DNA of 35,680 bases from Ammonifex sp. (GTDB lineage: Bacteria > Bacillota > Desulfotomaculia > Desulfotomaculales > Ammonificaceae), in assembly GCA_003604985.1 (NCBI GenBank), contig QZIW01000041.1, forward strand, positions 1 through 35,680. The letters are read 5' to 3'. Shown here piece after piece: positions 8,514 to 28,559 of this stretch; the first letter of the stretch is position 1, and each line of letters opens with the position of its first letter. Under the pieces are notes generated by a model. That model was not told where the DNA came from and did not search any database. It saw nothing but the letters and a program-made list of their open reading frames with translations. The translations under genes were made by a program, and so were the position numbers.

Positions 8514-9866
8514 GTGCCGAACGAAGTCCCGATCAATGTCCCCAAGCCCCACCCCAAGAATGCGGAATACTTTTCCGAACCCACGCCCGAAGAGCGCGAA
8601 GCGCTCAAAACCAGCATCGCTTCCGAAGGCATCCGCGATCCTCTGAAGGTAACGCCGGATTACACGGTCGTCGCTGGACACCTGCGCTTGGAGATCGCCA
8701 AGGAGTTAGGCTTTGAGAGGGTTCCCATCCAGATCATCGACGGTAGCCCGGAGTATCTGGAGTACCTGCTGATCGCCGACAACGATGAGCGGCGGGTGTG
8801 TCGGGACTCGATCAAAAAGGCGAAGCGGGCGGAGTTTCTGAAGCGGTACTGGGGAGTTAAAAGTGAAGCTGGGAGACCCAAAAAATTACCGCAAAATGCG
8901 GTAATTAACTGTAAAACAATGGTAGATGTGGCAGAAGCGATAGGTGAGAGCGTTGACTCTACCCAGCGTCTCCTTAAGCTCAACGACCTGATTCCCGAAC
9001 TTCAACAACTTGTTTCCCAGGCCAAGCTCTCCCAGACCGCGGCTCACTCTTTGGCCTTTCTGCCTCCGGAAGAGCAAAAACAGCTCCTCGAAACCCTGGG
9101 CGAGCACGGCATCAGCGGTCTCTCCGTGAAGGAGGCGCAGAATCTCAGGCAAGAACTGGACTCTTCCAGGAAGGAAAAAGACGCACTGGCAGATCGTCTG
9201 ATGGAACTAGAGGAGAAGAAAAAAGACCTCTCCAGGCAGCTTGTAGAGGTCCAGGACTCCCTCACTTCAATAGAAGAAGAAGTCGCCGAGAAGCTGGGCC
9301 GGCAGTACGAAGAAAAACTCCAGGAGGCCCTCTCCGGCTTACAGAAAAGACTCCGGGAAAGCCGGGAGGAAGCTGAAGGGCTGAAGGCTAAACTCAAGGA
9401 GCTAAAGGGGAGACCCATTGAAAAGGTCGTCGAGAAAGTCGTCTACCAGACAGACCCCAAACAGGAAGAAAAACTGAGAGAGCAGGAACTCAAAATCGCG
9501 CTGCTCGAAACGCAGCTCCAGGATCTCCGGCAGGCTTCCTCTACGGAGCCGGACGGGCTGAGCGAGGAAATAGAACGCCTGCGCGCCGAGAAGAAGGTTC
9601 TAGAGGCCGAAGTTAAGCGCGGCCGTGCGGCGTCCCAGTTCACGCGGACGGTCAGGGGTCTTATCCGCCAACTCGAAAAAGAGGAGCCCACCATCGAAAA
9701 CCTTTCCTACTCGGTTGAAACCGGCGGCATGGCCCTCTACTTTGTCGAGGCCCAGCGCTGGATCGGGACTCTAGAACGCTACATCAGGCACATCAGGAAC
9801 GCCTTCGGGCAGTCCGACGTTATTGACGTTACGGGAGGCGAAGACAATGCTCGCAAAGTGCAGTAA
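8514..9866 (+). CDS. ParB-like protein 1 (ParB/Srx domain, HTH, long coiled coil)
   Basis: A 450-residue protein from GTG 8514 with GAAAGGAG 9 bases upstream. Residues 1-95 are a ParB N-terminal domain (HPKNAEYF, EREALKTSIASEGIRDPLKV, TVVAGHLRLEIAKELG, LLIADNDERR); residues about 130-215 hold the HTH region (VDVAEAIGESVDSTQRLLKL and SQTAAHSLAFLPPEEQ). Residues about 215-375 are a coiled coil rich in E, K and L. The last 75 residues form a block repeated in the gene at 10604. Family ParBs bind palindromic sites and CTP; here a plasmid-segregation or regulatory role is inferred. It overlaps the next gene by 20 bases. Confidence 0.8.
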   Translation: MPNEVPINVPKPHPKNAEYFSEPTPEEREALKTSIASEGIRDPLKVTPDYTVVAGHLRLEIAKELGFERVPIQIIDGSPEYLEYLLIADNDERRVCRDSIKKAKRAEFLKRYWGVKSEAGRPKKLPQNAVINCKTMVDVAEAIGESVDSTQRLLKLNDLIPELQQLVSQAKLSQTAAHSLAFLPPEEQKQLLETLGEHGISGLSVKEAQNLRQELDSSRKEKDALADRLMELEEKKKDLSRQLVEVQDSLTSIEEEVAEKLGRQYEEKLQEALSGLQKRLRESREEAEGLKAKLKELKGRPIEKVVEKVVYQTDPKQEEKLREQELKIALLETQLQDLRQASSTEPDGLSEEIERLRAEKKVLEAEVKRGRAASQFTRTVRGLIRQLEKEEPTIENLSYSVETGGMALYFVEAQRWIGTLERYIRHIRNAFGQSDVIDVTGGEDNARKVQ

Positions 9867-10626
9867 TACTGTCCCGCAGACCTCGCCGGCGGCTGAGTTG
9901 ATGCGGAAGTCGAAAGAGCAGGCCGGGGCGCTGGTCTCCGCGCTCCAAGCGCACGTAGTATTTCTTTCTGAACAGCTTGAAAAGGCGGTCGCCTTGCTGC
10001 CCACCGTCGCCATGTACGAAAAGCACGCCGCCGACCTCCGGGAGTACGGCGGGATCGAGTCCCCGGAAGCCTTGATCGACAAGGTGGTCATCACGCCCGA
10101 GAGAGAGAAGGAGCTAGCGTCCCTGATCCGCAGGAAGGTCGCAGAGTGGGCGAAGGGCCACCCCACACTCGCTCCCCTGGTCCCCACGGTTTACGGGTAT
10201 ATTTACGGGCAGTTCCGCCGCAATTTCGGGTGCCGCCGGCTGTCCCGCGTCCCTCCCCAGGAGTACCAGGAGATCGTCGAGTTCATCAGGACCCTCCGCG
10301 TCCCTTCCCTTGCCGACTTCGGGCCGCTGGCCGCGGTGCTGATGGTCAACCGGGCGATGTTTGGGATCAGCGCGGCCCGTGCGGCGGCGGTGTGCGGGGT
10401 GAGCAGCAGGGCCATCCGGCACTGGGAGACGGGCGAAAACGTCCCCAGTCCCAAGAACATCCCCGCGCTGGCGCGGTTTTTGGAGATGAGCGAGCGGAAG
10501 GTGGAGCACCTCGCCGAGCAGCAACGAGTGTTCAACGGGGAGCAGAGAGAGGAAAGGGCTCTGTCTCAGCGGCCTGCGGCGCAGCTCGAAAGGGGCGATC
10601 AGATTGGAGAAACGCTCAGTCCGTGA
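9847..10626 (+). CDS. XRE-type HTH protein following parB1
   Basis: A 259-residue protein from ATG 9847, with GGGAGGCG upstream and its start inside parB1. The N-terminal half is helical with no known family. Residues about 175-228 contain an XRE-like helix-turn-helix (AAAVCGVSSRAIRHWETGEN followed by PSPKNIPALARFLEM), typical of plasmid and phage repressors. The C-terminus is charged and runs 23 bases into the next gene. The overlap chain parB1-XRE-HTH/coiled-coil suggests one co-translated unit acting on the same DNA sites. Confidence 0.65.
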   Translation: MLAKCSNTVPQTSPAAELMRKSKEQAGALVSALQAHVVFLSEQLEKAVALLPTVAMYEKHAADLREYGGIESPEALIDKVVITPEREKELASLIRRKVAEWAKGHPTLAPLVPTVYGYIYGQFRRNFGCRRLSRVPPQEYQEIVEFIRTLRVPSLADFGPLAAVLMVNRAMFGISAARAAAVCGVSSRAIRHWETGENVPSPKNIPALARFLEMSERKVEHLAEQQRVFNGEQREERALSQRPAAQLERGDQIGETLSP

Positions 10627-11176
10627 ATGGGCCCCGGAAGCAATTAACCTGCGGGAGCGGGGCCTCCTGCGATCCGAGGTCGCCAGACGCCTCGGCGTGC
10701 CGGAGGGGTCGGTCTCCTGGGTCCTCTTCCTCCACCGGCGACTGTCCGAATCCGATTGGGAGGCGTTCCTCAAAGGAGATCTGAGCAACAGCGGAGCCGC
10801 CGCCCGGGCGAGGGAACAGCCCGAAGCGCGGAAAGAGTCCGGGGCGCGGCGAGAGACTGTCCCCGAAGCCCGCCTGCGTTCCGAGCTGACCCCCCTCCAG
10901 GAGGAGGTCGACCGCCTGCGCGCAGAGAAAAAGCTCCTGGAGAGGGAAGTCAGACGGGGACGCGCCGCCTCACAGCTTGCCCGGCACCTGAGAAAGGTGA
11001 ATCTTATTCTAGAAAAAGAAGAGCCGCAGGTGGAGTACCTGGCCAGGATCACGGACCTTTCTCTTTATTTCACAGAAGCCCAGCGCTGGCTGGGAACTTT
11101 GAAGAGGTACGAGCGCCATATAAAAGAAGCCCTGGAGGGGCGGATAACGATTGACGGTCAACCCACCCCTCACTGA
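10604..11176 (+). CDS. HTH + coiled-coil protein sharing its C-terminal domain with ParB1
   Basis: A 190-residue protein from TTG 10604, preceded by AAAGGGG. Residues about 10-45 form a helix-turn-helix (LRERGLLRSEVARRLGVPEG). A charged coiled coil follows. Residues about 105-180 match the end of ParB1 closely: both have RLRAEKK-LE-EV-RGRAASQ, EKEEP and YF-EAQRW-GTL-RY-RHI. A shared oligomerisation or partner-docking domain is likely. The last codons and the stop lie inside the omega RNA of the first IsrB element, so the original terminus was replaced by the insertion. Confidence 0.6.
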   Translation: MEKRSVREWAPEAINLRERGLLRSEVARRLGVPEGSVSWVLFLHRRLSESDWEAFLKGDLSNSGAAARAREQPEARKESGARRETVPEARLRSELTPLQEEVDRLRAEKKLLEREVRRGRAASQLARHLRKVNLILEKEEPQVEYLARITDLSLYFTEAQRWLGTLKRYERHIKEALEGRITIDGQPTPH

Positions 11177-11401
11177 AGTGAGGGGCTTGCCCTGGCGGGG
11201 GCAAGGGCAACTGGCTGACTAGGCGGCTGTATAAGCAGCAGAGGTCCGCGGGGCTATCCAATCACTTCCGGGTGTTTCGCCGGCCCGGGTTATGTGAGGC
11301 AGAACCGCTGAATGCCATGGCTGACTAAGACCAGCCTAAGCCTTGCGGACGGCGCCGAGGCGACAATCACTTCCGTATGGGAGAAAGGAGTATCCTTTTT
11401 T
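11157..11401 (+). ncRNA. Omega RNA (HEARO RNA) of IsrB element 1
   Basis: The hairpins CCCCTCAC-TGAA-GTGAGGGG (11166-11185) and CTTGCC/GGCAAG (11186-11205) are followed by a GGCTGAC block that can pair back to GTCAACC, and later by GAGGCAGAACCGCTGAATGC, the hallmark block shared with element 2. The first hairpin has a different sequence but the same shape in element 2. In this family the guide lies 5' of the scaffold, here in the bases just before 11157 (…AACGATTGACG). The RNA runs into the isrB ribosome site. Confidence 0.75.
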
Positions 11402-12469
11402 ATGTCAACAAAATCGAACGAGCAGCCGAGAGTGCCTGTAGTAAACGTGGACGGCAAACCCCTTATGCCCACCACGCCAAGGAAAGCAAGGCTGCTCATA
11501 AAAGACGGCTTGGCGAAGCCTCAGAGGAACAAGCTGGGGCTTTTCTACGTCCAGATGACCAGGCCGGTAGGGACAAAGACTCAACCGACGGCCCTGGCCG
11601 AAGACCCCGGCGCGAAGTACGACGGGGTGGCCGTGGCTTCGCGCAGACAGGTCGAACTCAGGGCCATGGTCTTTCTCCCCGACGACGTGCCCCAAAAGAT
11701 GGACGCCCGCAAAAACCTACGCCGGGCCAGGCGCTACCGCAAGACGCCCAGGAGACCCAAGAGGTTCGACAACCGGAAGAGGAAGAAATACTGGCTGGCC
11801 CCCACTCAGAGATCTAAAGTCGAGACCAGGCTGAAAGTCGTCAGGGAGCTTTGCAAAATCTACCCCATCCAGCTCATTGTCACCGAGGACGTGCGTTACA
11901 ACCATTACCGTTACAGGGACGGCAAATATTTCTCCACGGTCGAGATCGGCAAGACCCTGACCTACCGCGAGTACCGGAAACTCGCCGAGCTTAAGCTTGT
12001 GGAAGTTTCCGACACGGACGCCTGGCGGGAGAAGTTCGGACTGTTTAAGTTAACCACCAGGAAGTGGGAGCAGGTTCCGGAGACCCACGCGAACGACGCG
12101 GTGGCCATGCTGATGGGCACAACCGGGTGCGAAAACAACCCGTCCGCTCCGTTCTTCGTCTGGCGGCGCTTGCGTTACGCCAGGAGGAGCCTGCACCGGC
12201 AGAACCCGCAAAGAGGTGGTATGCGATCCAGATTCGGCGGCACTTCCAACGGCGGCTTTCTTTGCAAGGGCGACTGGGTGGAGGCCGAGAAAGCGGGTCG
12301 GGTTTACCGCGGTTGGGTGTGCGGCCTGCCGACGGAGATCACAAAACTGGTGGGCGTGGCCGACGCCGACGGTAAACGCATCGGCCAGTTCAGCCCGAAA
12401 AAAACGAGGCTGCTGGCGCGTTCTACAGGATTTTCGTGGAAGGAGGTGAAGACCGCATTCCTCCCCTGA
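11402..12469 (+). CDS. isrB: IsrB-type RNA-guided nickase (RuvC only, no HNH)
   Basis: A 355-residue protein from ATG 11402 with AAAGGAG about 11 bases upstream; an upstream in-frame ATG at 11312 lies within the RNA and is rejected. Visible parts: PLMP motif (20-23), RuvC-I with D68 (AEDPGAKYDG), arginine-rich bridge helix (103-125), RuvC-II with E162 (IVTEDV), RuvC-III with H229 and D232 (THANDAV), then the C-terminal RRSLH…GGMRSRFGG block. Only about 70 residues separate RuvC-II and RuvC-III, too short for an HNH insert. IsrB proteins use the omega RNA to nick one DNA strand. All RuvC acidic residues are present, so it may be active. Confidence 0.85.
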   Translation: MSTKSNEQPRVPVVNVDGKPLMPTTPRKARLLIKDGLAKPQRNKLGLFYVQMTRPVGTKTQPTALAEDPGAKYDGVAVASRRQVELRAMVFLPDDVPQKMDARKNLRRARRYRKTPRRPKRFDNRKRKKYWLAPTQRSKVETRLKVVRELCKIYPIQLIVTEDVRYNHYRYRDGKYFSTVEIGKTLTYREYRKLAELKLVEVSDTDAWREKFGLFKLTTRKWEQVPETHANDAVAMLMGTTGCENNPSAPFFVWRRLRYARRSLHRQNPQRGGMRSRFGGTSNGGFLCKGDWVEAEKAGRVYRGWVCGLPTEITKLVGVADADGKRIGQFSPKKTRLLARSTGFSWKEVKTAFLP

Positions 12470-12499
12470 CTGAAGTCAAGGGAATCCTGCGGTCGGTAT
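12451..12499 (+). repeat. Right end of IsrB element 1
   Basis: The outer stem GACCGCA/TGCGGTC (12451-12457 with 12488-12494) encloses TCC-TCC and an inner hairpin around CCCTGAC-TGAA-GTCAAGGG. The isrB stop codon lies within it. Followed at 12500 by TTGA, which supplies the start codon of the next gene. Confidence 0.65.
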
Positions 12500-12685
12500 T
12501 TGAAAAACATTCACATGGACCTCGACGGCGACGTTTTGGTAATCAGGGTCGACCTGACCAAAAGCTTTGGTCCGTCCACGTCCGGGAAAACAACTATTAT
12601 CGCTTCCACTGAAGGCAACGTGGCCGTGCCCGGACGTGAAGATGTTAAGGTCGGCGTCAATGTATATACGAAAAGGTCGACGTAG
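12500..12685 (+). CDS. Small conserved hypothetical protein (SGKTTIIASTEGN type)
   Basis: A 61-residue protein with a pattern I recognise from many small uncharacterised bacterial, archaeal and plasmid proteins: a two-strand N-terminus (DLDGDVLVIRVDL), FGPSTSGKTTIIASTEGNV, VPG and VGVNVY. The SGKT is not a Walker motif in context. Function unknown. TTG 12500 gives the usual family N-terminus but lies exactly at the element's right end, so the original ribosome site is gone; ATG 12515 is an alternative start. Confidence 0.6.
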   Translation: MKNIHMDLDGDVLVIRVDLTKSFGPSTSGKTTIIASTEGNVAVPGREDVKVGVNVYTKRST

Positions 12686-12784: not shown

Positions 12785-13714
12785 TTGGAACTCTTCGATG
12801 ATGTATTCAGGTCTGTCGCGCAGGGCAAGGAGTTTGCCGAGGTCTTCACGCCGGAAATTATCGACAGCCTGGCCGAGCTGAACGATTCGGAGTACGACGT
12901 GTTCAGGGTGCAGCTCGACGCCCACCTGATCCTGAACCAGATTGAAATGGAAGACATTAAGAACCTGGACAAGCTTGTCCGGGCGGCCCGGGCCAGGCTG
13001 GAGGAAAAGCGATCCAAGCTGCCCTTAGTGCCCTTAAGAGAGCAGCTGCCGGACGCCCCGGACAGCGCGCTCTTCGTCCCGCCCGGGTGGCTGCTTACGC
13101 ACGACGGGGTGTATCAGACTGACGCTCAGGGTGTCCCGAAACTCCGCGTATGCACATCTCCTATCTACGTCGCGGAGAAGCGCGTGGACCCCGACAGGAG
13201 AAGGACGCACTTTCTCCTATCAGTAAAGGTCGGAGAGTGGCGCACCACGGCGGTTCCCGCGTCGTTTTCGGGGAAAAAGGCGGCCTTCGCAATTACAGAC
13301 ATGGGCGTGCTGGTGCTGGACGCAAAGGCTTTCTCGCGGTACTGGGACGACTTCCTGCGGGTCAACTGGGACACCTTGCCCGTTACAGAGAGCGACTGCG
13401 CCTTGTACGACGAGCTCGTGTCTTATGTAGCGGACAGCCTCGGCAAGATCTCCGACGCCGGTCCCTGGGGCAAGCTGGTCGACGGCAAAGAAGGCTCTTA
13501 CCTGGCGCTGAAGCCCGAGGTTGTCAGGAGGTTTGCCAGAACCGCGGGCGTGGACTACGAGCACTTGCTCCTCTCCCTGCGGGAGAAGGGTCTTCTGCTT
13601 TCCGACGGCGGCTCCCGCCTTAAGACGGTCTGGTTCGGCGGCCGGGCCCGTCGGATGGTGGCGGTCGCTTGGGACCGGCAAGCTTCGGAGCTACGCTCTG
13701 CCTGCGGAGCGTAG
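12785..13714 (+). CDS. DUF927-like protein lacking an obvious ATPase core
   Basis: A 309-residue protein from TTG 12785 with GGAGGTG upstream. Residues 1-95 are helical. Residues about 98-200 (FVPPGWLLTHDGVYQ, VCTSPIYVAEKRVD, then strand-rich sequence) resemble the N-terminal part of DUF927 helicase-like proteins, and residues about 235-300 (a Lys-Glu-Gly-Ser segment, then LLLSLREKGLLLSDGG and a basic end) resemble their C-terminal wing. No Walker A or B lies between, so it may be a family member stripped of its motor. This is a by-eye resemblance only. The 3' end overlaps a perfect hairpin. Confidence 0.4.
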   Translation: MELFDDVFRSVAQGKEFAEVFTPEIIDSLAELNDSEYDVFRVQLDAHLILNQIEMEDIKNLDKLVRAARARLEEKRSKLPLVPLREQLPDAPDSALFVPPGWLLTHDGVYQTDAQGVPKLRVCTSPIYVAEKRVDPDRRRTHFLLSVKVGEWRTTAVPASFSGKKAAFAITDMGVLVLDAKAFSRYWDDFLRVNWDTLPVTESDCALYDELVSYVADSLGKISDAGPWGKLVDGKEGSYLALKPEVVRRFARTAGVDYEHLLLSLREKGLLLSDGGSRLKTVWFGGRARRMVAVAWDRQASELRSACGA

Positions 13715-13715
13715 C
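13690..13715 (+). other. Perfect 9-bp hairpin at gene end
   Basis: GCTACGCTC and GAGCGTAGC flank an 8-base loop across the stop codon of the preceding gene. There is no T-run, so it is a weak candidate for termination; it may stabilise the mRNA end or be a protein-binding inverted repeat. Confidence 0.4.
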
Positions 13716-13779
13716 AGTCGCCGACCCTGCGCGCACATTTTCGAAAGAAGAGCCTGTTCTGCGAGAGGAGACATTTTTA

Positions 13780-14325
13780 ATGCTTTCAGTCCAGTCCAAC
13801 CGGGGCCGCGCTCTGGAGGATTTAGTGGAGCGGGCCTTCGACAACGACCCCGGGTCGAAGATGTTTCACCAGAACAACAAGACAGTGATTCTCCGCGACG
13901 GGACAGCCTTTTACCAGAAAGGAAAAGGGGCGCCCGTGGACTTCGTAGGTACAGTGAGGGGAATCCCTGCGGCCGTGGAGTGCAAGGAGACTAGTTCTTC
14001 CAGGCTTTCTCTGGCGGAGAGCCGTTTCCCTGAAAAAGAAAAAAAGGCCCTGGAGGAATTCGAGCGGGCGGAAGGCAGGAGCTTCATAGTCGTAGCCTTT
14101 TGGAAAGAGGACTTGCTGGCCGTATTCACCGTGGACGCACTCAGGAATAGGAAGAGCCTTTCGCCAAAAGAGGCTGCGTTTACTCTCCCTGTAAGCCAAG
14201 CGATGCTTTTGCCACAGAAGATCTGGACGGCATCTGCCATCTTGAGAAACGAAGGAGAGGAATGTCTGTGCCGCACAACAGGAAGCCCCTGGGCATCAAA
14301 GCCTACGGCAGCATCCCGCACCTGA
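13780..14325 (+). CDS. RecU-like Holliday junction resolvase
   Basis: A 181-residue protein from ATG 13780 with GAGAGGAG upstream. It shows the RecU pattern: NRGRALEDLVERA at residues 5-17, KGAPVDFVGTVRG with the catalytic Asp, IPAAVECKET with the E-x-K core of PD-(D/E)xK nucleases, and RSFIVVAFWKEDLLAVFTVD. RecU resolves four-way junctions in Firmicute recombination and repair; phage and plasmid versions are common. The last 20 residues, encoded over the start of the ligase gene, look unstructured. Overlap with the next gene is 64 bases. Confidence 0.75.
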   Translation: MLSVQSNRGRALEDLVERAFDNDPGSKMFHQNNKTVILRDGTAFYQKGKGAPVDFVGTVRGIPAAVECKETSSSRLSLAESRFPEKEKKALEEFERAEGRSFIVVAFWKEDLLAVFTVDALRNRKSLSPKEAAFTLPVSQAMLLPQKIWTASAILRNEGEECLCRTTGSPWASKPTAASRT

Positions 14326-15008
14326 TCGGCAGCCGTACAGGGCCGGGCGACCACACCGTGAGCTCCGGTCAGCACCGCATCTGCGTCGAGAAAACGCGGG
14401 ATAGGCACGACCTGATTATAGTGGAAGAGAAACTCGACGGCAGTTGCGTGGCCGTTGCCCTCCTGGGCGGCAAAATCGTCCCCCTTGTTCGCGCGGGCTA
14501 CGTGGCTTGGTCATCTCCCTACGAGCAGCACCGCCTCTGGGCCAGGTGGGTGCAAGCCAATGAGGACAGGTTCCACGCGGTGTTAAATGAGGGTGAGCGG
14601 CTGGTGGGCGAGTGGCTGGCCCAGGCGCACGGGACTAGATATGCCTTGCCGCACGACCCGTTCGTCGCTTTCGACCTGATGCGGAGTCATATAAGGGAGC
14701 CGCGCTCCGTCTTCTGGGAGCGCGTAGCCGGGGTTTTCGTCACGCCGCGGGTCATCCATGTCGGCGTCGTCGTCAGCATAAAAGAAGTTCGCGCCGGGCT
14801 CAAACTGTCCGGCCACGGGGCACTCGACCCCGTGGAAGGCGCAGTCTGGCGCGTCGAGCGGGACGGAAAGGTTGACTTTCTTGCTAAATGGGTGCGGCCA
14901 GACAAAATCGACGGGCTGTATCTGCCGGAAATAAGCGGCGGGAAACCGGTCTGGAACTGGTGTTGCTCTGAAGAGAGTTCTGCCTTTCCCTCTGTGTCTT
15001 GCCGCTGA
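14262..15008 (+). CDS. RNA ligase / nucleotidyltransferase-superfamily ligase
   Basis: A 248-residue protein from ATG 14262 with GGAGAGG upstream. Ligase motifs are readable: motif I EKLDGS with the lysine that becomes adenylylated (about residue 57), a central GEWLAQAHG, motif III PFVAFDLM, motif IV EGAVWRV and motif V LAKWVRPDK. This set fits the RNA_ligase family (T4 Rnl2-like cores) more than DNA ligases, which carry an OB domain. It would seal nicks in RNA using ATP. Operon position between RecU and RNase HI suggests nucleic-acid repair; tRNA repair is a possible role. Confidence 0.75.
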   Translation: MSVPHNRKPLGIKAYGSIPHLIGSRTGPGDHTVSSGQHRICVEKTRDRHDLIIVEEKLDGSCVAVALLGGKIVPLVRAGYVAWSSPYEQHRLWARWVQANEDRFHAVLNEGERLVGEWLAQAHGTRYALPHDPFVAFDLMRSHIREPRSVFWERVAGVFVTPRVIHVGVVVSIKEVRAGLKLSGHGALDPVEGAVWRVERDGKVDFLAKWVRPDKIDGLYLPEISGGKPVWNWCCSEESSAFPSVSCR

Positions 15009-15020
15009 AAGAATACTTGG

Positions 15021-15053
15021 AAACCGGACCGAAAGCAGCCCGGTTTTTATTTT
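15021..15053 (+). terminator. Intrinsic terminator abutting the RNase HI ribosome site
   Basis: AAACCGG/CCGGTTT (15021-15027 with 15040-15046) and a T-rich tail, followed with no gap by GGAGGTGG at 15055. Another case of a terminator-like hairpin placed directly before a Shine-Dalgarno. Confidence 0.6.
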
Positions 15054-15067
15054 TGGAGGTGGTGCGC

Positions 15068-15727
15068 GTGCTTACAGTCTACTGCGACGGCTCCTGCGAG
15101 CCCAACCCGGGTGGTATTGCCGCGTTCGGCTGGGCAGTCTACGACGGCAAAGAAAAGGTTCATGAGTTCTACTCTGTTGCCTGTAAGGGAGAAGGCGCAA
15201 CTAATAACGTTGCCGAGTACAGCGCGGTTATTTCTGCCTTAAGCTGGCTTTTGGCCAACGGCTACGCAGAGAGGAGGGTCACCGTCCACTCCGACAGCGA
15301 GCTCCTGGTTCGCCAGCTTGCCGGGAAATACAGGGTCAAGGCCCCGAACCTTATCCCCCTGCACCGGCGGGCCCTGGAACTGGCCGCCCTCTTCAGGGAA
15401 GTCGCTTTCAGGTGGGTTCCCAGGGAGAAAAACGTCGAAGCCGACGCGCTTTCTCAAAAGGCCCGCCAGGGCGCCCTGTTGAGCCACGGAAGGGGGGAGA
15501 AGGCCCGGGGGCTGGCCCCGCTCGTCCGTCACCTGGAGGGCGGCCTGTACGCCGTGCCTTCGCAGTCGGATCCGTTCAAGACCTATACCGTGGACCTGTC
15601 GAGGAACACCTGCGACTGCCCCGACTTCCGGGCCAGGGGCAAGAGGCTGGGCTACTGCAAGCACATTCTTGCCGTGAGGGAGTTTGCGGAAGGGGCACCG
15701 GAAACGCATGTGCTCTGCGGAAGTTGA
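15068..15727 (+). CDS. RNase HI fused to a SWIM zinc finger
   Basis: A 219-residue protein. GTG 15068 is chosen because GGAGGT at 15055-15060 is spaced 7 bases; GTG 15062 is too close. Residues 1-135 are RNase HI: YCDGSCEPNPGG, NNVAEYSAVISAL, VHSDSELLVRQL and NVEADALSQKA supply the DEDD acidic residues. Residues about 150-210 carry CDCPDF…YCKHILAV, a SWIM-type CxC…CxH zinc finger. RNase HI degrades RNA in RNA-DNA hybrids; SWIM fingers bind DNA or proteins. I know of no common RNase HI-SWIM architecture, so the fusion is notable. The reading frame is continuous across the join. Confidence 0.85.
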   Translation: MLTVYCDGSCEPNPGGIAAFGWAVYDGKEKVHEFYSVACKGEGATNNVAEYSAVISALSWLLANGYAERRVTVHSDSELLVRQLAGKYRVKAPNLIPLHRRALELAALFREVAFRWVPREKNVEADALSQKARQGALLSHGRGEKARGLAPLVRHLEGGLYAVPSQSDPFKTYTVDLSRNTCDCPDFRARGKRLGYCKHILAVREFAEGAPETHVLCGS

Positions 15728-16934: not shown

Positions 16935-17178
16935 GTCAGCCACCCACGGCTAAACCCGTGGGCTTGCCTTAGCGGAGGCAAGGGTAGCTGGTTGACTAGA
17001 CTAAGCCCTTCGAGGGCTACGCAAGCGGGGCTACAAGAACCTCCCGGGTGCTCGTTCCAGCCTGGGGACATTCGGCAGAACTGCTCAATGCCGCGTCCAG
17101 CGCTCAGCTAACTAAGTGCTGGACTAAGCCCTGCTTGCCTTGTCGAGGGACGCTCAACCGAAAGGGGGCACGATTACC
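16935..17178 (+). ncRNA. Omega RNA (HEARO RNA) of IsrB element 2
   Basis: GTCAGCC (16935) can pair with GGTTGAC (about 16991). In between are a CCCACGG/CCGTGGG-type hairpin and CTTGCC/GGCAAG, exactly as in element 1. Further on, CGGCAGAACTGCTCAATGCC matches the element 1 block GAGGCAGAACCGCTGAATGC, and GTCCAGC/GCTGGAC makes a 3' stem. The expected guide is the sequence just upstream (…TAAGGAGTTGCA). The RNA ends near the AAAGGGGG ribosome site of isrB. Confidence 0.75.
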
Positions 17179-18198
17179 GTGCAAAAAGTACCGGTAGTAC
17201 ACCTGGACGCTACACCGTTAATGCCGTGCTCGCCGTCGAAAGCAAGAAGGTTGCTCAAAAGCGGCGGCGCGGTCAAGAAGTGGACAAAGACAGGAATCTT
17301 TTACATCCAGTTAACTACTCCAACGGGCAAGCACACTCAACCATTGGCGTTGGGCTACGACCTGGGAGCCAAATACGATGGCCTTTGCGTAGCCAGCGAG
17401 AAGCGGATGCAGACCTCCGGGATGCTGGTAGTGGACAACAGGATAGCGAAGAAGATGGAGCGGCGCCGCAACATGCGCAGAGCCAGACGCTTCCGTAAGA
17501 CGCGCAGGCGGCCTGCAAGGTTTGATAATCGCAGTAAACCGGAAGGGTGGCTGCCGCCCAGCATTAAAGCGAAGGTGGAAATGCGGATACGATTCTTAAA
17601 ACACTTATTGGCGATCTACCCTATCACCACGGTAGCAGTAGAGGACGTAAAGATGGACGGTAACAAATTAAAAGGGCAAAAAGGCAGAAAGTACTGGACG
17701 TGGGTAATGGTAGGCAAAACCAAACTGTACCAATGGCTGAAGCAATATGTGGAACTAACGCTATACGAACGGTCAGACACCGTCCGGGTTAGAACCGAAG
17801 CAGGATTACGGAAGGTAAGCAAAAAAGGCGCCCGTGTATTTGAGTCTCAGGCAGTGGACGGGTTAGCCCTATGCTTATTGGCGTTGGGTACAAAAGACAC
17901 AGCGGTAACCGGTTTCAGCGTTTGGCGCACGCCCGACGTACCCAGGCGGCAACTGCATCGTCTGGAGCCGGGAAAAGGCGGTATCCGTCCGCCTTACGGC
18001 GGCAGCGTGGCGTTAAGCTTCAAGAAAAATACGGTTGTCGAGTACCACGGGAAGCTTTACCGCACAGGCGGCACAACCAAAGGGAGATTAAGCCTCCACA
18101 GCTTCGACCTTGATAACCGGCGGGTGACGCAAAACGCCAAGCCGGAGCAGTGTAAGAAGTTGTTTGTGCAGACCTGGTTTCAGAAAAAAGTGATTTAA
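17179..18198 (+). CDS. isrB: IsrB-type RNA-guided nickase 2 (RuvC only, no HNH)
   Basis: A 339-residue protein. GTG 17179 with AAAGGGGG 10 bases upstream is preferred over the upstream TTG at 17140. Parts in order: PLMP (13-16), RuvC-I D61 (GYDLGAKYDG), bridge helix MRRARRFRKTRRRPARFDNR, RuvC-II VAVEDV, RuvC-III QAVDGLAL, and RRQLHRLEPGKGGIRPPYGG, the C-terminal signature typical of IscB/IsrB. The gap between RuvC-II and RuvC-III is again about 70 residues, so no HNH. The usual DPG and the RuvC-III histidine are altered (DLG; SQAVD), yet the acidic residues remain. Activity is plausible but less certain than for copy 1. Confidence 0.85.
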   Translation: MQKVPVVHLDATPLMPCSPSKARRLLKSGGAVKKWTKTGIFYIQLTTPTGKHTQPLALGYDLGAKYDGLCVASEKRMQTSGMLVVDNRIAKKMERRRNMRRARRFRKTRRRPARFDNRSKPEGWLPPSIKAKVEMRIRFLKHLLAIYPITTVAVEDVKMDGNKLKGQKGRKYWTWVMVGKTKLYQWLKQYVELTLYERSDTVRVRTEAGLRKVSKKGARVFESQAVDGLALCLLALGTKDTAVTGFSVWRTPDVPRRQLHRLEPGKGGIRPPYGGSVALSFKKNTVVEYHGKLYRTGGTTKGRLSLHSFDLDNRRVTQNAKPEQCKKLFVQTWFQKKVI

Positions 18199-27235: not shown

Positions 27236-27272
27236 TTTTTCAGAAACCTTTTCCCGAAAGGAGATGATGTCC

Positions 27273-28559
27273 TTGCCTAACGAAGTCCCTATTTCTCTTT
27301 TAAAGTCCCACCCCAAGAACATGGAATACTTCTCTGAACCTGCGCCCGAAGAGTACGAAGCCCTGAAAAAGAGCATCGCTTTGGAAGGCGTCCGCGATCC
27401 ACTGAAGGTAACTCCCGACTACACGGTGGTCGCAGGCCATGTTCGGCTGGAGATCGCGAAGGAGCTGGGCCTGGAGAAGGTTCCCGTCCAGATCATCGAC
27501 GGCGATCCCAAGTACCTGGAGTACCTGCTTATTGCCGACAACGAAGAAAGGCGGGTGTGTCAGAACCCGATCAAGAAAGCGAAGCGAGCGGAGTTCCTGA
27601 AACGGTACTGGGGAGTGCGGCAAGGAAGCGCAAACCCCAAAGGAACGGCGGTTCCTCGTCAGGTTGAAAATCTACCTGACGATAAGAAAACTCTGTCCAA
27701 TGTTGCTGAGGCTATCGGAGAAAGCCTCTTTAGCACGAAGCAGCTTCTCAAACTCAACGACCTAATCCCATTTCTCCAGGAGCTTGTCTCCCAAGGCAAG
27801 TTTTCCCAGACGGCGGCCCACTCTTTGGCTTTCTTGCCTCCGGAAGAACAAAAGCAGCTACTCGAAGCCCTCGGTGAATCCGGCGTCTGCGGCCTCTCCG
27901 TAAAAGAAGCCCAGGAACTCCGCCGTCAGGTTGAGGCTGCCCGCAAAGAACGGGACGCCTTGGCCGAAAAGCTGGCCGAAGCACAGGAACGGGAACGTAA
28001 TACTGAACGCCGGATCGCTTCTATTCGCCAGCAAGTGGAAGATATAGAGGCTGAGATCGCTGAGAAGGTCGGCCGGCAGTACGAGGAAAAGATGCGGGAA
28101 AAACTGGCTGAACTTCAACGACAGACAGTTTCGCTCAAGACGGAAAAGGACGAGGCGCAGCGATCCATTACTTCGCTTAAAGCAAAGATTAAAGAATTGG
28201 AAAGCGCTCCACCTAAAGTCGTGGAAAAAGTCGTAGAAAAAGTTCCAGAGGATTATCAGCGGATCAAGAAAGACCTGGAGGTAAAAAGCAACGAACTGCT
28301 GGCCCTCACGCGTTCCCAGTTGCTACAAAAAGACCGCTACAAGATCCACGACATGTTTTCTGACTTGGTTCAAGCCCTCGGAAAACACATGAAGCGGATC
28401 GAACTGGAGATTAGTAAACACCCCGGCGATCCCGATATCTATAAAGACGCGACGGAATGCGCCACCCTCCTTGAAAAAAGCGCCGGCGAGATCAGGCGCT
28501 GGGTTAGCCCGAGAGGGGGTGTCGTGATTGAAGCCGACTTTACCACCCGATCCGTTTAA
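27273..28559 (+). CDS. ParB-like protein 2
   Basis: A 428-residue protein. TTG 27273 aligns with the ParB1 start (both begin with PNEVPI) and keeps the GAAAGGAG spacing; in-frame ATGs at 27264 and 27267 sit too close. The ParB/Srx domain (HPKNMEYFSEP, GVRDPLKVTPDYTVVAGHVR, LLIADNEERRVC) and HTH region are nearly the same as ParB1, then the coiled coil diverges and the C-terminal 80 residues (…DRYKIHDMFSDLVQALGKHM…) are unrelated to ParB1. It overlaps the next gene by 32 bases. Lying inside the tad operon, it is probably a transposed or duplicated module. Confidence 0.8.
   Translation: MPNEVPISLLKSHPKNMEYFSEPAPEEYEALKKSIALEGVRDPLKVTPDYTVVAGHVRLEIAKELGLEKVPVQIIDGDPKYLEYLLIADNEERRVCQNPIKKAKRAEFLKRYWGVRQGSANPKGTAVPRQVENLPDDKKTLSNVAEAIGESLFSTKQLLKLNDLIPFLQELVSQGKFSQTAAHSLAFLPPEEQKQLLEALGESGVCGLSVKEAQELRRQVEAARKERDALAEKLAEAQERERNTERRIASIRQQVEDIEAEIAEKVGRQYEEKMREKLAELQRQTVSLKTEKDEAQRSITSLKAKIKELESAPPKVVEKVVEKVPEDYQRIKKDLEVKSNELLALTRSQLLQKDRYKIHDMFSDLVQALGKHMKRIELEISKHPGDPDIYKDATECATLLEKSAGEIRRWVSPRGGVVIEADFTTRSV

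What the first reader, a model, noticed from the sequence alone, without database searches (positions are those of the whole stretch)
11157..12499. Complete HEARO/IsrB RNA-guided nickase element inserted at the end of the parB1 cluster
The sequence directly shows a structured RNA region, an HNH-less RuvC protein with PLMP, bridge helix and all acidic residues, and a right-end double stem. The omega RNA starts inside the last codons of the HTH/coiled-coil gene, so the predicted guide (bases just before 11157) is that gene's own 3' coding sequence. Compact IsrB systems are rarely characterised, and this one looks intact.
Basis: partly seen in the sequence, partly recalled or inferred. Interest (0 to 1): 0.8.

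Follow-up and report, generated by a model that had tools for sequence, protein, structure and literature searches.

The report
Ordinary RNA-guided nickase transposon (IsrB)
This is an intact small jumping element that carries an RNA-guided DNA-nicking protein (IsrB) and its guide RNA; it is a close cousin of the IsrB whose structure has already been solved, so it is a good clean example rather than something new.

Summary
Window 11157-12499 is a complete IsrB (HEARO/OMEGA) element of IS200/IS605 type: left-end hairpin, omega RNA, HNH-less RuvC protein (11402-12469, 355 aa) and right-end double stem. The protein is 83.5% identical to Desulfovirgula thermocuniculi IsrB (PDB 8DMB), with RuvC acidic residues, PLMP domain, bridge helix and the TAM-reading Arg/Gln kept. 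Rfam HEARO matches end to end (59 bits, E 6e-11) but stays below the curated gathering score of 83. Related elements in other genomes fix the ends: left ends start GTCA, and all seven right ends stop directly before TTGAA, containing the known DtIsrB TAM (TTGA). In one relative, joining the flanks there gives a frame that aligns without gaps to an uninterrupted homologue. The left flank is therefore the guide, and flank+TTGA the target left after excision. The guide is the last codons of the upstream HTH/coiled-coil gene and occurs once in the genome. A Y1 transposase elsewhere in the genome could act in trans. One difference: the omega-RNA 3' tandem hairpins are rewritten, with the ribosome site in the second one. 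A second, divergent IsrB element lies at 16935. New member of a known kind; low interest.

The parts
11137..11156 (+). predicted 20-nt guide (GGGGCGGATAACGATTGACG), which is flanking DNA: the last codons of the HTH/coiled-coil gene
   Evidence: Lies directly 5' of the conserved GTCA left end; unrelated sequence at this place in every relative; a single match in the genome with up to 3 mismatches
11157..11401 (+). omega RNA scaffold / left end of the element
   Evidence: RF02033 HEARO 11157-11370, 59 bits, E 6e-11; aligns to 7 relatives; consensus fold with 20 of 69 pairs showing compensatory change
11166..11185 (+). left-end hairpin CCCCTCACTGAAGTGAGGGG (SL1 of the omega RNA; IS200/605-type end hairpin)
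11370..11398 (+). 3' tandem hairpins of the omega RNA: CUUCC-GUAU-GGGAG and AAAGGA-GUA-UCCUUU, the second holding the ribosome-binding site (AGGAG, 11386-11390)
   Evidence: fold; relatives have CUCC-GAAA-GGAG followed by GCCG-UGUAU-CGGC at this place
11402..12469 (+). isrB gene, 355 aa: PLMP domain, RuvC split by an arginine-rich bridge helix, no HNH, TAM-interacting C-terminal domain
12451..12499 (+). right end with double stem (GACCGCA...TGCGGTC enclosing CCCCTGACTGAAGTCAAGGG); overlaps the 3' end of isrB
   Evidence: boundary from relatives
12500..12503 (+). TAM TTGA abutting the right end (TTGAA in all seven right ends); also the TTG start codon of the downstream gene
   Evidence: TAM preference of DtIsrB from PMC9581776
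10604..11176 (+). host gene upstream: HTH/coiled-coil protein whose last codons are the guide; its present stop codon (11174-11176) lies inside the element's left-end hairpin
12500..12685 (+). 61-aa conserved gene directly downstream, probably separated by the insertion from its original upstream sequence
   Evidence: homologues in 14 related genomes, most matching from residue 1; where read, most start ATGAAAAACGT

Best explanation
A non-autonomous IS200/IS605-type transposon encoding IsrB, an OMEGA nickase. A Y1 (HUH) TnpA acting in trans would move it as single-stranded DNA through the end hairpins, inserting between a flank and TTGAA without target duplication (boundaries shown by comparison; movement inferred). 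The transcript carries the adjacent 20 nt of flank as guide, followed by the omega-RNA scaffold; IsrB binds it (inferred from DtIsrB). When the element leaves, or meets a chromosome copy without it, the restored site reads guide+TTGA, a matched target with the right TAM. [quoted passage not shown] The benefit to the element is inferred by analogy with TnpB (PMC11870625).
For: Protein: 83.5% identity to DtIsrB over 352 aa; conserved N268, R326 and Q329, equivalent to DtIsrB N265, R323 and Q326, whose mutation reduces or abolishes nicking. AlphaFold model best match 8dmb_P, E 4.5e-55. RNA: HEARO full-length E 6e-11; 20 of 69 consensus pairs with compensatory change. Ends: GTCA at every left end and TTGAA after 7/7 right ends, where TTGAA occurs at about 0.0009 per position in the window. 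Joining the L010 flanks restores an ORF aligning without gaps across the joint to an intact homologue in G039. In a divergent IsrB group, two copies 99.9% identical in one genome (L014, L033) diverge at the left-end GTCA. Trans-acting tnpA candidate, 149 aa, with HIH motif and Y1_Tnp 119 bits, in the same genome. The guide matches only its own locus.
Against: HEARO score is below Rfam's gathering score. No empty site of this very locus was found in relatives, so the joint GACG|TTGA here rests on the family rule. No TnpA ends matching this element were shown, so the trans pairing is a guess. No expression or activity data. The omega-RNA 3' hairpins differ in sequence from DtIsrB.
Confidence: 0.93

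Rival explanations
1. An inactive or decaying IsrB remnant that no longer nicks or moves.
For: No tnpA in the element; rewritten omega-RNA 3' hairpins; a relative in L003 carries an early stop in its IsrB and lacks a recognisable right end.
Against: Open frame of 355 aa with all tested functional residues; both ends present; both 3' hairpins still fold.
Confidence: 0.05
2. A domesticated RNA-guided regulator: IsrB uses the host-derived guide to bind DNA and control neighbouring genes rather than to keep the element in place.
For: The element sits between two genes and the downstream TTG start codon is the TAM; nuclease-dead TnpB-derived regulators are known (own knowledge).
Against: RuvC residues are intact; guides differ at every insertion, as expected for a mobile element and not for a conserved regulator; no guide match outside the insertion site in the held, 73% complete genome.
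Confidence: 0.02
3. An IscB or TnpB element instead of IsrB.
For: NCBIfam's IscB model matches the N-terminal half.
Against: That match is below the family cut-off (118 against 175 bits) and stops at residue 175; no HNH domain; best structure match IsrB 8dmb at 82% identity. The RNA lies 5' with the guide at its 5' end, whereas TnpB's lies 3' (own knowledge).
Confidence: 0.01

Closest known systems
Desulfovirgula thermocuniculi IsrB (DtIsrB, PDB 8DMB; PMC9581776)
   Same: 83.5% protein identity, same domains and functional residues, same omega-RNA architecture, same LE/RE sequences, TTGA abutting the right end (locus L009, whose protein reads the same as 8dmb over the aligned region)
   Different: SL1 is short (8 bp) against a long SL1 in L009; 3' tandem hairpins are different in sequence with the SD in the second hairpin; N-terminus three residues longer; guide and site differ
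Rfam RF02033 HEARO
   Same: full-length match to the covariance model, same order: structured RNA then ORF
   Different: 59 bits, below the gathering score of 83
OgeuIscB and other IscB
   Same: PLMP, split RuvC with bridge helix, omega RNA upstream
   Different: IscB has an HNH domain and cuts both strands; only about 19% identity in the structural match

Membership tests
IsrB (OMEGA nickase) | RuvC nuclease with all three catalytic motifs | tested here: met
   D68, E162, H229/D232 aligned with DtIsrB
IsrB (OMEGA nickase) | no HNH domain, about 350 aa, short HNH linker | tested here: met
   355 aa; aligns to DtIsrB with one 3-residue gap near the N-terminus; only RRXRR found in Pfam
IsrB (OMEGA nickase) | PLMP N-terminal domain and bridge helix | tested here: met
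   PLMP at 20-23; arginine-rich helix 95-112
IsrB (OMEGA nickase) | omega RNA (HEARO) directly upstream | tested here: met
   RF02033 1-211 of 211, E 6e-11, but under the gathering score
IsrB (OMEGA nickase) | TAM (TTGA for DtIsrB) next to the right end, guide outside the left end | tested here: met
   TTGAA after all seven right ends; variable flank before GTCA
IsrB (OMEGA nickase) | RNA-guided nicking of the non-target strand | not testable with these tools
   shown for DtIsrB in PMC9581776, not for this protein
IS200/IS605 element | subterminal hairpins at both ends, insertion without target duplication | tested here: met
   hairpins; flanks joined without duplication restore an ORF in the relative L010
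IS200/IS605 element | own Y1 transposase (tnpA) | tested here: not met
   none in 11157-12499; two Y1_Tnp genes elsewhere in the genome, so non-autonomous at best, as many IsrB/IscB elements are
IscB | HNH domain inserted in RuvC | tested here: not met

The most novel reading that the evidence does not exclude
The omega RNA of this element has rebuilt its 3' tandem hairpins with new sequence while keeping their shape, moving the ribosome site from the first hairpin to the second. That would make it a natural variant in which IsrB binding and IsrB translation are coupled through a different hairpin.
Probability: 0.3. Interest if true: 0.3.

Novelty: new member of a known kind. Interest (0 to 1): 0.2.

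Why it matters
It is a close, intact natural homologue of the structurally characterised IsrB, within a set of related elements with clean ends. They show from sequence alone that the TAM abuts the right end and the guide abuts the left end of IsrB elements, so the target is the element's own empty site. Useful as a comparison enzyme; it opens no new question by itself.

Tried and rejected
Empty site of this very locus: the upstream gene's homologues occur in only three other genomes of the order searched, and the two read closely (L034, L035) are followed by a terminator-like sequence, not by the downstream gene; the guide was absent from viral contigs. Viral contigs hold no close relative of this IsrB; plasmid relatives listed are at most 39% identical. 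Joining L003b's flanks gave no intact homologue outside the same genome; L008 and L009 joints were uninformative. A premature stop or frameshift in the window's IsrB was looked for and not found. Sigma-70-like promoter scan: none, not informative. A covariance model of the local family was not built because the Rfam model and the alignment already settle the RNA.

Full report
Observation. A default Rfam scan of the window reports only tRNAs, but a focused scan finds HEARO (RF02033) at 11157-11370 over the complete model, 59.0 bits, E 6e-11; the curated gathering score is 83 bits. The ORF downstream opens at 11312, but homology and the ribosome site put the start at 11402; the 355-aa product ends at 12466 with no internal stop. 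Pfam gives RRXRR (E 1.9e-41). NCBIfam's IscB model matches only residues 13-175 and below cut-off. Against the PDB the best hit by far is IsrB 8dmb_P, E 6.9e-199.

Protein. Locus L009, from a genome of the same order, encodes a protein that reads the same as the 8dmb chain over the aligned region. The window protein is 294/352 = 83.5% identical to it, with a single 3-residue gap near the N-terminus. With published DtIsrB numbering the two PLMP prolines (17, 20), the phosphate-lock Asn265 and the TAM-reading Arg323 and Gln326 map to identical residues P20, P23, N268, R326 and Q329. RuvC motifs DPGAKYDG, TEDVR and THANDA are intact. PMC9581776 reports that N265A reduces, and R323A and Q326A abolish, nicking. 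An AlphaFold model from a nine-sequence alignment (mean pLDDT 75.7) finds 8dmb_P first (E 4.5e-55), then IscB structures, then RuvC.

RNA. The scaffold aligns to seven relatives' left ends. A consensus fold has 69 pairs, 20 with at least one compensatory double change. The left-end hairpin CCCCTCACTGAAGTGAGGGG is 8 bp; in L009 and L004 it is extended. The 3' end differs: relatives read CTCC-GAAA-GGAG then GCCG-TGTAT-CGGC, while the window reads CTTCC-GTAT-GGGAG then AAAGGA-GTA-TCCTTT. Both hairpins are kept in shape, but the ribosome site sits in the second hairpin rather than the first, and the protein's N-terminus is rewritten (MSTKSNEQPRVPVV). PMC9581776 reports that the tandem hairpins contact the PLMP domain and that removing both lowers activity. 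Whether the change matters is untested; the isolated 56-nt stretch does not fold better than shuffles, so this point rests on the comparison.

Ends, guide and TAM. Across the elements in L003, L004, L008, L009, L010, L011 and the window, the left end begins GTCA and what precedes it is unrelated. The right end, readable in the window, L003, L004, L008, L009, L010 and L017, ends directly before TTGAA in all seven. TTGAA occurs at about 0.0009 per position in the window. TTGA is the TAM that DtIsrB prefers at 60 C (PMC9581776). In L010, joining the left flank to TTGA gives a 77-aa frame that aligns without gaps across the joint with an intact homologue in another genome (L064 in G039). In a divergent IsrB group, two copies in one genome (L014, L033) are 99.9% identical from the left-end GTCA (within four bases) to the end of the shorter locus and have different flanks. 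No empty allele of this very site was found.

Host genes. The guide is the final coding sequence of the HTH/coiled-coil gene 10604-11176, whose present stop codon (11174-11176) is supplied by the element. The TAM's TTG is the start codon of a 61-aa conserved gene, homologous in 14 related genomes and starting ATGAA(A/G)AACGT in those read. At the joint GACG|TTGA the upstream frame would run on for about 37 codons, overlapping the downstream gene. The exact pre-insertion C-terminus is not known.

Mobility. The element has no transposase. The genome (MAG, 73% complete, 89 contigs) has two Y1_Tnp genes; the one on contig C87 is a 149-aa IS200-type TnpA with an HIH motif and the catalytic Tyr region. 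Its flanking hairpins do not resemble this element's ends by eye, so the pairing is not established. The guide occurs once in the genome, at its own site, so the resident complex has no self-target in the held sequence unless the element leaves or an empty copy arrives.

Mechanism. Shown here: the parts, ends, TAM position, guide position, and conservation of residues required for nicking in DtIsrB. [quoted passage not shown] spread of TnpB-bearing IS elements by guide-directed cleavage of empty copies (PMC11870625). Inferred: the same retention or drive role for a nickase.

Verdict. The finding is correct and well described. It is a new member of a known kind, very near the best studied member, and of low surprise.

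Noticed in passing
window 16935-~18264: A second, divergent IsrB element: HEARO 16935-17158 (76.3 bits, E 4.5e-15) followed by a protein at 17182-18198 that is 40% identical to the first. Its RuvC-III reads SQAVD instead of THAND (His replaced by Gln), shared with relatives L014 and L033, so probably a subfamily trait. What follows its right end is ATGA, an NTGA-like TAM that may also be the start codon of ORF 18269.
   Followed up: partly
L003 3751-6159 (Desulfofundulus thermobenzoicus): An IsrB copy with an early in-frame stop and no recognisable right end, followed 2 kb downstream by a 320-bp miniature element made of left end, full omega RNA and right end with no isrB and its own guide: a possible trans-acting guide RNA or MITE-like derivative.
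   Followed up: partly
L014 and L033: Two IsrB elements 99.9% identical at different sites of one genome, i.e. recent movement of the Gln-type IsrB subfamily.
   Followed up: partly
window 12500-12503; L004 5073: In the window, and probably in L004, the TAM TTGA coincides with the TTG start codon of the downstream gene, the element sitting between that gene and its original upstream sequence. Could reflect similarity of NTGA(A) to start-codon contexts; not tested statistically.
   Followed up: no
window 8514-9866 and 27264-28559: Two ParB-like coiled-coil paralogues of similar sequence; the first is followed by an HTH/ORF6C gene and the HTH/coiled-coil gene that shares its C-terminal region. 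RecU-, RNA-ligase- and RNase-H-like genes (13669-15727) and, from the translations alone, Tad/Flp pilus-like genes nearby suggest an integrated mobile element.
   Followed up: no
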